Shown here: in pieces, positions 22,635 to 26,415 of the stretch
Layout of the letters: every line of letters starts with the position of its first letter
Numbering within the stretch: position 1 is the first letter of the stretch
NCBI RefSeq assembly: GCF_001187435.1
Contig: NZ_LFXA01000004.1
Coordinates: forward strand, 5,001-69,000
Reading direction: 5' to 3'
From: Streptomyces caatingaensis
GTDB taxonomy: Bacteria > Actinomycetota > Actinomycetes > Streptomycetales > Streptomycetaceae
Length of the DNA: 64,000 nt
Notes under the pieces: generated by a model
The model's database searches: none
What the model was told of the DNA's origin: nothing
Seen by the model: the letters and a program-made list of their open reading frames with translations, nothing else
Program-made: the position numbers and the translations under genes

Positions 22635-24161
22635 GTGCCGCATTCCATCGACGCGTCATTCCTCGCCCTTCCCCTGCGTCCGCTGGCCGACGCCGCCCTG
22701 GCCCGCGCCCGCGCGCTGGGCGCCGACCACGCCGACTTCCGCTTCGAGCGGGTGCGCACCGCCGGCCGGCGGCTGCGCGACGCGCGCCTCGCGGGCTCCT
22801 CGGACACCACCGACCTCGGGTACGGGGTGCGGGTGGTGCACGACGGGGCCTGGGGCTTCGCCTCGGGCACCGAGCCGACCATGGACGCCGCCGCGCGCGT
22901 GGCCGGGCAGGCGGTGGCCATGGCCAGGCTGGCGGCGAAGGTGAACGCCACGGCGGGTTCGGCCGAGAGGGTGGAGCTGGCCGACGAGCCGTCCTACGGC
23001 GAGCGCACCTGGGTCTCGTCCTACGAGGTGGACCCCTTCTCCGTACCGGACGCCGAACAGACCGCGCTGCTGGCCGACTACAGCGGCCGGCTGCTGGCCG
23101 CGGACGGCGTGAGCCACGTGGACGCCTCGCTGGTGGCGGTGCACGAGAACAAGTTCTACGCGGACACCGCGGGCACGACGACCACGCAGCAGCGCGTCCG
23201 CGTCCACCCCCGCCTGACCGCGGTGGCCGTGGACGCGGCCGGCGGCGCCTTCGAGTCGATGCGCACCCTGGCCCCGCCGGCGGGCCGCGGCTGGGAGTAC
23301 CTGACGGGCACCGGCTGGGACTGGGACGCCGAACTGGCGGAGATCCCCTCGCTGTTGGCGGAGAAGCTGCGCGCGCCGGGCGTGCGGCCGGGGGCGTACG
23401 ACCTGGTCGTCGACGCGTCCAACCTGTGGCTGACGATCCACGAGTCGGTCGGCCACGCCACCGAGCTCGACCGGGCGCTGGGCTACGAGGCGGCGTACGC
23501 GGGCACCTCGTTCGCCACCCCGGACGGGCTGGGGACGCTGCGGTACGGCTCGCCGCTGATGAACGTCACCGGCGACCGGACGGCCGAGCACGGCCTGGCG
23601 ACCGTCGGCTACGACGACGAGGGCGTGGCCGCCCAGTCCTGGAGCATCGTCGAGCACGGCGTCCTGACCGGCTACCAGCTCGACCGGCGCATCGCCCGGC
23701 TGCACGGCCTGGGCCGCTCCAACGGCTGCTCGTACGCGGACTCGCCGTCGCGCATGCCGGTGCAGCGCATGGCGAACGTCTCGCTGCTGCCCGCCCCGGA
23801 CGGGCCCTCGACGGAGGAGCTGATCGCGGGCGTGGACCGGGGGATCTACGTCGTCGGCGACCGGTCGTGGTCGATCGACCAGCAGCGCTACAACTTCCAG
23901 TTCACACAGCAGAGGGCGTACGCGATCCGGAACGGCCGCCTGTGCGGGCAGCTCCGGGATGTCGTCTACCAGGGGACAACCCCTGACTTCTGGGGCTCCA
24001 TGGAAGGGGTCGGCGGACCCCGGACTTACGTCCTAGGAGGAGCTTTCAACTGCGGAAAGGCCCAGCCCGGACAGATTGCCGCCGTGTCTCACGGGTGCCC
24101 CTCGGCACTGTTTCGGAATGTGAACATCCTCAACGCTTCGGCCGAGTCGGGTCGACCTTGA
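22635..24161 (+). CDS. tldD: TldD-family metalloprotease subunit with a replaced, foreign-looking C-terminus
   Basis: GTG 22635 follows GGGAGG and gives 508 residues. The protein carries the TldD zinc site HESVGHATELD near residue 273 and the family tail YVLGGAFNCGKAQPGQIAAV. TldD/TldE heterodimers cleave modified or unfolded peptides (microcin B17 leader, CcdA) in the cytosol. The last 85 codons (from 23904) differ in style: 22 of 85 end in A or T, against 4 of 64 in the displaced original tail at 24821-25015. So the tail is foreign, but it restores a full-length TldD. The partner gene follows at 25012, after the insertion. Confidence 0.93.
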   Translation: MPHSIDASFLALPLRPLADAALARARALGADHADFRFERVRTAGRRLRDARLAGSSDTTDLGYGVRVVHDGAWGFASGTEPTMDAAARVAGQAVAMARLAAKVNATAGSAERVELADEPSYGERTWVSSYEVDPFSVPDAEQTALLADYSGRLLAADGVSHVDASLVAVHENKFYADTAGTTTTQQRVRVHPRLTAVAVDAAGGAFESMRTLAPPAGRGWEYLTGTGWDWDAELAEIPSLLAEKLRAPGVRPGAYDLVVDASNLWLTIHESVGHATELDRALGYEAAYAGTSFATPDGLGTLRYGSPLMNVTGDRTAEHGLATVGYDDEGVAAQSWSIVEHGVLTGYQLDRRIARLHGLGRSNGCSYADSPSRMPVQRMANVSLLPAPDGPSTEELIAGVDRGIYVVGDRSWSIDQQRYNFQFTQQRAYAIRNGRLCGQLRDVVYQGTTPDFWGSMEGVGGPRTYVLGGAFNCGKAQPGQIAAVSHGCPSALFRNVNILNASAESGRP

Positions 24162-24834
24162 CGGACCGCCCGCGCGGGGACCCCGATCGGGCACCGGGCC
24201 GACACGGCATCACGGCGAGCCGGCTAGGTCACGTCGTCCCGGTCACCGATGTCCTCCTCAGCAGGGGTCGGCTGAGGCGGCACGATGAGCCATGGGTGTG
24301 GGCCTTCCGTCGGGGGTGAAGTGCGCTTCCGCACGCGGTGGGTGTGGGTCGAGCGCTGGTTGTTCCCGCCTGTCCTGCGACCGGAGCCGGGCGCTATCCC
24401 TGAAGGAGGTGACCCACGGCAGGTGTGGGCGCGTACAAGGAGGGTGGGGACGTTGTCGCTTCTCGATCTTCAGTTGATGGAAGCCGAGTTCGGTGCGCGC
24501 GACCGCGAGACGGGCAAGGGTGCGGAGGCCGCTTCGGTCCTTGACCCCATGAGCGATCTCAGCCTGCTCCTGTGCCACTGACCGAGAGCGGGCGGCGGCT
24601 CGGGGGGGAGCCGACTCCTCAACGGCGAGCCGGGGGGCAGCCGTGGACGCCGGTGACACCCTCCAGCCCGCCCGCTTCCGGCGCCACGTCACCGGCTTTC
24701 GCCACGTGCCCGCCCTCTGCCACGTTCTGCGTCAGCCACAGGGAGTGAGGGCAGCCCGTGTAAGTCCTTATGACCTGCACAAACACATCTACGAGCAGTA
24801 CGCCCCCCGCTCCCCCGGTGAACTTCCGGTTCAC
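23892..24834 (+). mobile_element. About 0.93 kb insertion in the tldD 3' region, carrying a tldD tail and a lanthipeptide precursor gene
   Basis: The junction sequence AACTTCCAGTTCAC (23892-23905) recurs as AACTTCCGGTTCAC at 24821-24834, one mismatch in 14. Between them lie a recoded tldD 3' end (to 24161), about 290 bases without a recognised gene, the peptide gene at 24453-24581, and about 240 bases with no gene. Beyond the second junction the original tldD tail resumes and reaches tldE. No transposase or integrase is present, so this is a non-autonomous cassette, a decayed element, or the product of recombination with a foreign tldD locus. Exact ends are inferred from the two aligned tails. 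Confidence 0.65.
24453..24581 (+). CDS. Class III lanthipeptide (SapB/AmfS-like) precursor peptide, orphan
   Basis: TTG 24453 lies 8 bases after AAGGAGGG and encodes 42 residues, beginning MSLLDLQLMEAEFGARD. LLDLQxM is the conserved leader motif bound by class III LanKC synthetases (SapB has NLFDLQSM, AmfS ALLDLQAM). The C-terminus ends ASVLDPMSDLSLLLCH, with SDLSLLLC an exact Ser-x2-Ser-x3-Cys labionin/lanthionine ring motif. SapB-type cores usually have two such motifs; this one has a single full motif. No synthetase or exporter gene is in the window. An in-frame GTG at 24423 follows a perfect AAGGAGGTGA and would add 10 residues; the TTG start gives the canonical leader. Untranslated flanks show nothing else. 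Confidence 0.82.
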   Translation: MSLLDLQLMEAEFGARDRETGKGAEAASVLDPMSDLSLLLCH

Positions 24835-25015
24835 CGGGCAGTGTTTCTGGGGTGCGATGACGGCGGTGGGCGGCCCGGAGACCTATGTGCTGGGCGGGGC
24901 GTTCAACTGCGGCAAGGCGCAGCCGGGCCAGATCGCGGCCGTCTCGCACGGCTGCCCCACGGCCCTCTTCCGGAACGTGAACGTCCTGAACACCGCGCAG
25001 GAGGCCGGGAAATGA
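24821..25015 (+). pseudogene. tldD: Displaced original 3' end of tldD
   Basis: These 65 codons encode NFRFTGQ, then directly FWGAM, then the conserved TldD tail (YVLGGAFNCGKAQPGQIAAV ... LFRNVNVLN) and a TGA that overlaps the ATG of tldE (ATGA). Compared with the intact tail upstream, about 24 residues between FTGQ and FWG are missing. An ATG at 24770 is in frame with it but there is no reason to think the product works. It probably still provides the ribosome path leading into tldE. Confidence 0.85.
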
Positions 25016-26415
25016 CGAAGCGTCAGCAGCAGCCGCACGAGATCGTCGAGCGGGCCCTCGCCCTCTCCCGCGCCGACTCGTGCACGGTGATCGTCGGCGA
25101 GCGCTCCACGGCCGGCCTCCGCTGGGCGCGCAACGCGCCCACCACCAACGGCGTCACGCGCGGCCGCACCGTCACCGTGATCGCCGCCGTGGACGGCGGC
25201 GAGGGCACCGCCGCGGGTGTCGTCACCCGCTCCGGCGTCACCGCGGACGGGCTGGAGGAGCTGGTCCGGGCCGCCGAGGGGGCCGCCCGCGCGGCGGGGC
25301 CGGCCGAGGACGCCGTGCCACCGGTGACGGGCGTCCCGCAGTCCCCCGGTTTCACCGAGGAGCCCGACGAGACGACCGCGGCCGTCTTCGACTCCTTCGC
25401 CCCCGCCCTGGGCGAGTCCTTCGCGCGCGCCCGCTCCGCCGGCCGCGAGCTGTACGGCTTCGCCCACCACGAGAGCGTCACCAGCTACCTGGGCACCTCC
25501 GCCGGGCTGCGGCTGCGGCACGACCAGCCCACCGGCAGCGCCGAGCTGAACGCCAAGGGGGCCGACGGCACGGGCTCGGTGTGGGCGGCCGTGCCCACCC
25601 GCGACTTCTCGGACGTGGACCCCCTCGCCCTGGACGCCTCCCTCGCCGAGCGGCTGCGCTGGTCCCGCCGCCGCGTCGAGCTCCCCGCCGGGCGGCACCC
25701 GACGCTGCTGCCGCCGTCGGCCGTGGCGGACCTGATGGTCTACCAGCAGACCCGGGCCGACGCCCGGGGCGCGGCGGAGGGCCGCACCGCCTTCTCCCGG
25801 CCCGGCGGCGGCACCCGGGTCGGCGAGAAGCTGGCGGCCCTGCCGGTGACCCTGCGGACCGACCCCGCCGCGCCGGGCCTGGAGTGCGCCCCGTTCGTCC
25901 TGGCGGGCTGCTCCACCGACGGGATCTCGGTGTTCGACAACGGGCTGCCGGTGGGCACCACCGAGTGGATCCGCGACGGCGTGCTGGAACGGCTGATCAC
26001 CACCCGGCACAGCGCCGCGCTGACGGGCCTGCCGGTCGCGCCCTATCCGGACAACCTGGTCCTGGAGGCGGGCGGCACCCGCTCCCTCGACGAGATGATC
26101 GCGGCGAGCGGTCACGACGGCCCCGAGCTGCTGCTGAGCTCCCTCTGGTACATCCGCGAGGTGGACCCGGCGACGCTGCTGGTCACCGGGCTCACCCGGG
26201 ACGGGGTCTTCCTCGTGCGGGACGGCGAGGTGGTGGGCGAGGTCAACAACTTCCGCTTCAACGAGTCCCCCGTCGGCCTGCTCTCCCGGGCCGTCGAGGC
26301 GGGCCGCGCCGAACGCACCCTCGCCCGGGACATCGGCAAGTACTTCGGCCGGACGGCGATGCCGGCGCTGCGGATCCCGGACTTCAACATGAGTTCGGTG
26401 AGCAAGGGGGTCTGA
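25012..26415 (+). CDS. tldE: TldE/PmbA-family protease subunit
   Basis: ATG 25012 overlaps the stop of the displaced tldD tail. The 467-residue protein has the TldE/PmbA fold marks: ATVI-like start, GYFAHH-type strand (YGFAHHESVTSYLGTSAG), APFVLAGCSTDGISVFDNG, TNGLPV-type turn and the C-terminal NNFRFNESPVGLLSRA. It lacks the HExxxH zinc motif, as TldE should. It forms the TldD/E complex with the gene upstream. The insertion has separated its start from the functional tldD stop by about 850 bases, so coupling is now indirect or lost. Confidence 0.92.
   Translation: MTKRQQQPHEIVERALALSRADSCTVIVGERSTAGLRWARNAPTTNGVTRGRTVTVIAAVDGGEGTAAGVVTRSGVTADGLEELVRAAEGAARAAGPAEDAVPPVTGVPQSPGFTEEPDETTAAVFDSFAPALGESFARARSAGRELYGFAHHESVTSYLGTSAGLRLRHDQPTGSAELNAKGADGTGSVWAAVPTRDFSDVDPLALDASLAERLRWSRRRVELPAGRHPTLLPPSAVADLMVYQQTRADARGAAEGRTAFSRPGGGTRVGEKLAALPVTLRTDPAAPGLECAPFVLAGCSTDGISVFDNGLPVGTTEWIRDGVLERLITTRHSAALTGLPVAPYPDNLVLEAGGTRSLDEMIAASGHDGPELLLSSLWYIREVDPATLLVTGLTRDGVFLVRDGEVVGEVNNFRFNESPVGLLSRAVEAGRAERTLARDIGKYFGRTAMPALRIPDFNMSSVSKGV

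What the first reader, a model, noticed from the sequence alone, without database searches (positions are those of the whole stretch)
24453..24581. Orphan class III lanthipeptide precursor embedded between tldD and tldE
The 42-codon gene has the SapB/AmfS-type leader motif LLDLQxM at its start and an exact Ser-x2-Ser-x3-Cys ring motif (SDLSLLLC) at its end. A good ribosome site lies 8 bases before its TTG. Annotation pipelines would easily miss it because of the TTG start and small size. No LanKC synthetase, protease or exporter is in 64 kb, so it would need enzymes encoded elsewhere, or it is a decoy or remnant. The core seems to hold one ring rather than two.
Basis: partly seen in the sequence, partly recalled or inferred. 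Interest (0 to 1): 0.9.

Follow-up and report, generated by a model that had tools for sequence, protein, structure and literature searches.

The report
Orphan one-ring SapB-type peptide gene
A tiny Streptomyces gene encodes a likely precursor of a ring-shaped peptide related to the hormone-like SapB; it lies far from the genome's only matching ring-making enzyme, inside the remains of an integrated mobile element, and belongs to a small family of similarly stranded genes that enzyme-centred genome mining would miss.

Summary
The TTG-start ORF 24453-24581 passes the curated cut-offs for RamS (Pfam, 30.7 vs 24.3 bits) and SapB/AmfS (NCBIfam, 27.9 vs 25) and has one exact S-x2-S-x3-C motif. It has company: nine further precursors in other genomes (eight one-ring, one with two motifs), none with a LanKC within the 16-17 kb fetched. 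Leader L-L-D-Q-M, both ring Ser and the Cys are invariant in the nine aligned. All eight carrier genomes tested, this one included, hold a related LanKC; this genome has one match, on another contig beside a two-ring amfS. Modification in trans is likely but unproven. The site has a separate cause: tldD and tldE normally abut, and here a decayed integrative element of phage Success type splits them, leaving its replacement tldD tail, probable last codons of its integrase, and the displaced native tail. At least nine other genomes have that integrase beside tldD; none of the eight spans I fetched has the peptide. Relatives carry the gene in other places, several near msrA; this genome's syntenic msrA region lacks it. 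New variant of a known kind: conserved, unclustered, mostly one-ring class III precursors.

The parts
24453..24581 (+). Orphan class III (RamS/SapB/AmfS-type) lanthipeptide precursor, 42 codons, TTG start; leader LLDLQLME, core with one S-x2-S-x3-C motif (SDLSLLLC)
24437..24444 (+). Shine-Dalgarno-like AAGGAGGG, 8 bases before the TTG
   Evidence: read; relatives have purine-rich stretches at the same place
22635..24161 (+). tldD (TldD/PmbA metalloprotease); body host-like, 3' end element-supplied
   Evidence: Pfam PF19289/PF01523/PF19290; best match in the sampled genomes 82%
23960..24161 (+). Replacement tldD 3' end brought by the element (boundary approximate): third-position GC 0.70 against 0.98 in the tldD body; 82% aa identity over 89 aa (from 23892) to phage Success gp10
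24224..24334 (-). Probable remnant of the C-terminus of a phage Success-type tyrosine integrase (aligned 24230-24301); its stop lies 62 bases after the tldD stop
   Evidence: 50% over 24 aa, E 0.08-0.18; 0 of 2000 shuffles reach the score for 7 of 8 C-termini tried, 971 of 2000 for G053; no Pfam match
24770..24835 (+). Element arm at the far border: lead-in TCTNTSTSSTPPAPPVNFRFT resembling the N-terminus of gp10 and of the displaced-tail ORFs in other elements
24818..25015 (+). Displaced native tldD 3' end (GC3 0.94), overlapping the tldE start
25012..26415 (+). tldE (PmbA/TldE), normally abutting tldD

Best explanation
The ORF is a genuine, unclustered precursor of a one-ring class III lanthipeptide. 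SHOWN by sequence: family membership by curated profile, conserved leader and ring residues, a family of such precursors without a nearby LanKC, a single LanKC match with transporter genes elsewhere in this genome, and a location inside the remnant of a tldD-targeting integrative element. INFERRED: the leader LLDLQxME is recognised in trans by the AmfT on contig C2, which dehydrates Ser34 and Ser37 (perhaps Ser28 too) and closes one lanthionine or labionin ring on Cys41; the amf ABC pair exports it and an unclustered protease trims the leader; the product acts at the cell surface as a SapB/AmfS-like developmental peptide, or modulates the output of the canonical amfS. The link to tldD is only an insertion site: a phage Success-type element entered the tldD 3' end, replaced it with its own copy, then decayed to about 0.9 kb, leaving the peptide gene as the only recognisable intact gene between the borders.
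For: RamS and SapB/AmfS profiles over curated cut-offs. Ten unclustered precursors in all: nine of the 38 distinct loci examined, plus L078. Invariant L3 L4 D5 Q7 M9 S34 S37 L39 C41 in nine. Leader and ring columns pooled over all pairs pS 0.47, pN 0.13; against G051 pS 0.60, pN 0.24. LanKC in 8 of 8 carrier genomes tested, each at E<=1e-200, against 86 of 199 sampled genomes, five of them carriers; Fisher on 8/8 vs 81/194 p=0.0012. One LanKC match in this genome, 1145 bits to NF038151, beside a two-ring amfS and two ABC transporter genes. Element: GC3, phage Success, other genomes, integrase C-terminus.
Against: No transcript, mass or enzyme data. The score is near the cut-off. The LanKC association is not corrected for kinship: the LanKCs closest to this genome's are those of carriers G051, G060, G018 and G035, so shared ancestry may explain it. 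pN/pS of the 14 pairs printed is 0.39-0.87, only moderate constraint on a very short gene. None of the eight other tldD spans fetched carries such a peptide and no phage record or viral contig matched it, so the element may not have brought the gene. No flank homology with the G051 copy was found. In a decaying element the gene could be on its way out.
Confidence: 0.7

Rival explanations
1. Decaying cargo or pseudogene: a once functional precursor stranded in a dying element, no longer expressed or modified.
For: The surrounding element is reduced to about 0.9 kb with a truncated integrase; TTG start, where the eight aligned relatives have ATG or GTG; the lower-scoring of the two RamS matches of the genome; no copy at this genome's msrA region.
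Against: ORF, ribosome site, leader and ring are intact; changes relative to G051 favour silent sites (pS 0.60, pN 0.24); relatives at other sites are also unclustered.
Confidence: 0.2
2. Regulatory decoy: the one-ring peptide competes with AmfS for AmfT, transporter or receptor and so tunes or delays aerial growth, rather than being a morphogen itself.
For: Similar leader to the genome's AmfS but a single ring motif; the synthetase was found in all eight carrier genomes tested.
Against: No direct evidence; processed one-ring class III peptides are known in Firmicutes (passages of PMC8960859).
Confidence: 0.15
3. Substrate of the neighbouring TldD/TldE protease, i.e. a functional tldD-peptide-tldE unit.
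For: Adjacency only; TldD/E matures other RiPPs such as microcin B17 (recalled, no call).
Against: tldD-tldE lie within about 0.1 kb of each other in 27 of 28 other genomes; tblastn found no tldD at 1e-3 or better identity range near the G051, G035 and G060 copies, and the neighbourhoods of the others read are different genes; the adjacency is explained by the element insertion.
Confidence: 0.03
4. Chance ORF that happens to resemble RamS.
For: Short and near the curated score cut-off.
Against: E=1.7e-5 in a six-frame search of the whole genome; 62% identity to the G051 peptide at another site, with the ring conserved.
Confidence: 0.02

Closest known systems
SapB (RamS) / AmfS class III lanthipeptides of Streptomyces
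   Same: LLDLQ-type leader followed by Met; S-x2-S-x3-C motif; over both curated profile cut-offs; AmfT-type LanKC in the genome
   Different: Not beside LanKC or transporter; one ring motif instead of two; Ala-Ser before the ring in 7 of the 9 aligned
Pre_24 peptides (bacinapeptins, paenithopeptins; PMC8960859, passages seen)
   Same: Only one S-x2-S-x2-5-C motif; maturation proteases mostly encoded outside the cluster
   Different: Firmicutes; the precursors sit in LanKC clusters, it is the proteases that are unclustered
Prochlorosins (start of the abstract of PMC10783134, listing)
   Same: One promiscuous synthetase serving several precursors
   Different: Class II (ProcM) synthetase and Nif11-family precursors; their wide scattering in the genome is recalled, not read here
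Streptomyces phage Success and related elements at tldD
   Same: tldD 3' end carried next to a convergent tyrosine integrase; same order in the window remnant
   Different: No match to the peptide in Success or any other phage record, nor in the eight tldD spans fetched

Membership tests
SapB/AmfS (RamS) class III precursor | Score over the curated profile cut-off | tested here: met
   PF19402 30.7 vs 24.3 bits; NF033212 27.9 vs 25
SapB/AmfS (RamS) class III precursor | LLDLQ-type leader for LanKC recognition | tested here: met
   LLDLQLME; LLDLQ as predicted recognition motif in passages of PMC13380574. Binding itself not tested
SapB/AmfS (RamS) class III precursor | S-x2-S-x3-C ring motif | tested here: met
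   S34, S37, C41, invariant in the nine aligned
SapB/AmfS (RamS) class III precursor | Two rings (usual, not definitional) | tested here: not met
   One motif only
SapB/AmfS (RamS) class III precursor | Gene next to LanKC (usual cluster form) | tested here: not met
   No LanKC in the window; the only match is on contig C2
SapB/AmfS (RamS) class III precursor | A LanKC in the same genome | tested here: met
   C2:685733-688423, 1145 bits to NF038151
SapB/AmfS (RamS) class III precursor | Lanthionine or labionin ring formed by LanKC | not testable with these tools
   needs enzyme assay or mass spectrometry
Success-type integrative element at tldD | Replacement tldD 3' end and displaced native 3' end | tested here: met
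Success-type integrative element at tldD | Convergent tyrosine integrase after the replaced tldD end | tested here: inconclusive
   Only about the last 24 residues survive; position and strand fit; 0 of 2000 shuffles for 7 of 8 C-termini, 971 of 2000 for the G053 stretch
Success-type integrative element at tldD | Intact and mobile | tested here: not met
   about 0.9 kb remnant; no Success integrase match at E<=1e-30 in this genome

The most novel reading that the evidence does not exclude
A family of unclustered, mostly one-ring class III precursors forms a separate trans-acting branch of the SapB/AmfS system: freed from its synthetase, it moves between genome sites, here as cargo of an integrative element, and borrows the host's AmfT and exporter to release a second peptide that modulates or subverts colony development.
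Probability: 0.15. Interest if true: 0.85.

Novelty: new variant of a known kind. Interest (0 to 1): 0.55.

Why it matters
Large-scale lanthipeptide mining starts from LanC-like synthetase genes (passages of PMC7268733), so a precursor with no synthetase nearby would be missed. A conserved unclustered family would mean that SapB/AmfS-type synthetases have additional natural substrates and that the SapB developmental system may have a second peptide. The strain here is a clean test case: one synthetase match, one canonical precursor, one orphan.

Tried and rejected
Functional link to TldD/TldE: rejected; tldE follows tldD within about 0.1 kb in 27 of 28 other genomes and the relatives of the peptide sit among other genes.

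Phage or plasmid origin of the peptide: tblastn against 50,697 phage records gave no match, against plasmids one weak irrelevant hit; a scan of viral contigs gave 135 pattern matches but no confirmed relative; the Success integrase matched nothing in viral contigs. None of the eight other tldD spans fetched has a RamS-like ORF by my motif screen or by tblastn of the peptide.

Homologous flanks between the window copy and the G051 copy, or with this genome's own msrA region: five local alignments, none beyond shuffles (72, 227, 37, 223 and 86 of 300 shuffles reach the score).

G018's own 3.2-kb insert between tldD and tldE: no second tldD tail was found and its tail has GC3 0.92, so it does not look like the same element; Pfam gave nothing for its 126-aa ORF, and its long frame was never scanned (one search failed).

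RamR/AmfR binding site upstream: only a paper search, not tested. AplP-type protease in this genome: not tested. Structure prediction: not run.

Literature: searches. Among the titles and abstract starts listed I saw none describing unclustered SapB/AmfS precursors or tldD as a Streptomyces attachment site. The lists were capped: 15 of 34, 15 of 44 and 10 of 97 were shown, and the library is open-licence only. I saw passages of three papers (PMC7268733, PMC13380574, PMC8960859) and only listings of the rest; PMC6510168, the one paper with all tldD/attB terms, and PMC12715929, on lanthipeptide genes beside genetic exchange systems, were not opened.

Full report
WHAT IS THERE. The ORF at 24453-24581 (+) encodes LSLLDLQLMEAEFGARDRETGKGAEAASVLDPMSDLSLLLCH with a TTG start. 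An AAGGAGGG lies 8 bases upstream. It passes the curated cut-offs of Pfam RamS (E=4e-7, 30.7 bits vs 24.3) and NCBIfam SapB/AmfS (27.9 vs 25). Searching the whole genome in six frames with RamS gives two matches over the cut-off, this one (28.7 bits, E=1.7e-5) and a canonical amfS on contig C2 (59.9 bits); of 14 control genomes two give matches, none over the cut-off. The longer in-frame ORF from 24285 also matches but scores less, and eight relatives start at the homologue of the TTG.

THE ENZYME IS ELSEWHERE. The window has no LanKC. The genome has one match to a LanKC at E<=1e-20: on C2, 1145 bits to the class III synthetase model NF038151, with two ABC transporter genes and a two-ring amfS (MALLDLQNMESEEMHDGGGHGGESSASLLSCVSAISVLLCL) beside it and a response-regulator gene close by. 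Modification in trans is inferred from the shared leader; LLDLQ as a predicted recognition element is from passages of PMC13380574.

A FAMILY OF UNCLUSTERED PRECURSORS. A single-sequence search of 295 genus genomes found the peptide in 4 including its own. Profile searches of 392 genus genomes, 394 family genomes and 272 genus genomes, which overlap, and one scan of named contigs gave more. I examined only hits that the tools returned as loci: 46 loci, 38 distinct. In 29 a LanKC lies within about 1.5 kb; in 9 none does. The 9 are G000, G018, G035, G051, G060, G241, G258, G574 and G626; with L078 (titled Streptosporangium nondiastaticum) there are ten. G060 and G241 correspond to Streptomyces klenkii and S. 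roseoverticillatus by matching contig lengths (and the place names). No LanKC was found at 1e-10 in the 16-17 kb fetched around each of the nine outside this window; in G018 the gene lies 0.2 kb from a contig end, so one side is unseen. Nine of ten have a single ring motif; G258 has two. Of the 29 clustered peptides, by eye, 27 have two ring-like motifs and two (L050, L055) have one S-x2-S-x3-C motif plus another Cys. In the nine aligned (without G258), M1, L3, L4, D5, Q7, M9, S34, S37, L39 and C41 are invariant; M1 is so because I wrote start codons as M. Silent changes per site exceed amino-acid changes: pS 0.60 and pN 0.24 against G051; ratios 0.39-0.87 over the 14 pairs printed; leader and ring columns pooled over all pairs pS 0.47, pN 0.13.

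SYNTHETASE IN THE CARRIERS. 8 of 8 carriers tested (all but G258 and L078; this genome included) hold a LanKC related to this genome's AmfT, best matching stretch 74-100% identical. In 199 sampled genus genomes, 86 reach E<=1e-200, five of them carriers. Fisher's test on 8/8 vs 81/194 gives p=0.0012 but ignores kinship. Against a simple reading: the closest LanKCs belong to carriers, which may only mean that they are relatives.

WHERE RELATIVES SIT. In G051, G574 and G626 the peptide lies within about 2 kb of msrA, in G035 about 7 kb away, and the G018 locus shares genes of the same region although its contig ends before msrA. G060, G241 and L078 share another region, with a signal peptidase II gene. 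G258 shares two genes with the G035 region. This genome's msrA region on C9 is syntenic but shows no peptide, and no further copy was found in the genome. So the copy in the window has changed place or arrived separately.

WHY IT IS BETWEEN tldD AND tldE. Of 28 other genomes with a tldD match at E<=1e-30, 27 have tldE within about 0.1 kb after tldD; the exception is G018. Here 850 bases intervene, and a second tldD 3' end, 72% identical over 65 aa, lies before tldE. The end attached to tldD is unlike the rest of the gene: third-position GC 0.70 vs 0.98. It is 82% identical over 89 aa to gp10 of Streptomyces phage Success, a 110-residue 'metalloprotease' fragment that looks like a tldD 3' end and lies next to a convergent tyrosine recombinase. 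In the window, 62 bases after the tldD stop and on the minus strand, lie codons matching the last 24 residues of that integrase: weak alone (E 0.08-0.18; no Pfam match) but beyond all of 2000 shuffles for 7 of 8 integrase C-termini tried; the G053 stretch, which diverges at that end, does not match (971 of 2000). Before the displaced tail lies a lead-in like the gp10 N-terminus. Of 392 genus genomes 62 have a match to the Success integrase at E<=1e-30; I checked 12 of their loci and 9 lie beside tldD, five of these with a full-length or nearly full-length integrase. So nine is a minimum. I fetched the tldD-tldE span of eight (not G345). Seven show the displaced tail before tldE, about 3.5-7.5 kb after the first; in G053 the integrase lies directly between tldD and tldE with no displaced tail found. 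The window is therefore best read as a strongly decayed element of this kind. None of the eight spans has a RamS-like ORF by motif screen or tblastn, so I cannot say that the element brought the peptide; it only lies within the borders.

HOW IT MOST LIKELY WORKS. Ribosomal precursor; leader bound by AmfT in trans; Ser dehydrated; one ring closed on Cys41; export by the amf ABC pair; leader removal by an unclustered protease, since protease genes are absent from most characterised class III clusters (passages of PMC8960859). Function is probably at the colony surface, as for SapB and AmfS. Everything after 'precursor gene' is inference. One-ring class III peptides are known (Pre_24), so a single ring is no obstacle.

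NOVELTY. The chemistry is known; the unclustered, conserved, mostly one-ring branch is a new variant. Published mining anchored on LanC-like proteins (passages of PMC7268733) would not see it. In the listings of my paper searches (partly capped, open-licence library only) I saw no description of it.

Noticed in passing
window 23960-25015; L091-L096, L098, L100, L102; L146-L153: The tldD 3' end is an attachment site for Success-type integrative elements in Streptomyces: at least nine of 392 sampled genomes have the integrase there, four of them truncated or broken.
   Followed up: yes
L086:5880-6212 (phage Success gp10): Annotated 'metalloprotease', but it looks like a tldD 3' end carried beside the integrase, so presumably it restores tldD on integration.
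   Followed up: yes
L149:5298-6988 (G080): Two successive displaced tldD tails, in reversed-or-forward span as fetched, suggesting two insertions at the same site.
   Followed up: partly
L042:13480-16670 (G018): A different 3.2-kb insert between tldD and tldE with an 870-residue open frame that looks membrane-rich by eye; no Pfam match for its 126-aa ORF, the long frame not scanned.
   Followed up: partly
L166:7779-8024 (G258): An unclustered relative of the peptide with two SxLS...C motifs (SDLSVGTC and SNLSVLLC), as if the ring had been duplicated.
   Followed up: partly
L050, L055 (G086, G263): LanKC-adjacent precursors ending ASKYCGGTSxLSLLLC, one classical ring motif plus an extra Cys.
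   Followed up: no
G018 contigs C3, C6, C8, C12, C27: G018 gives eight LanKC-like match rows (some are parts of one gene), against a single one in this genome.
   Followed up: no
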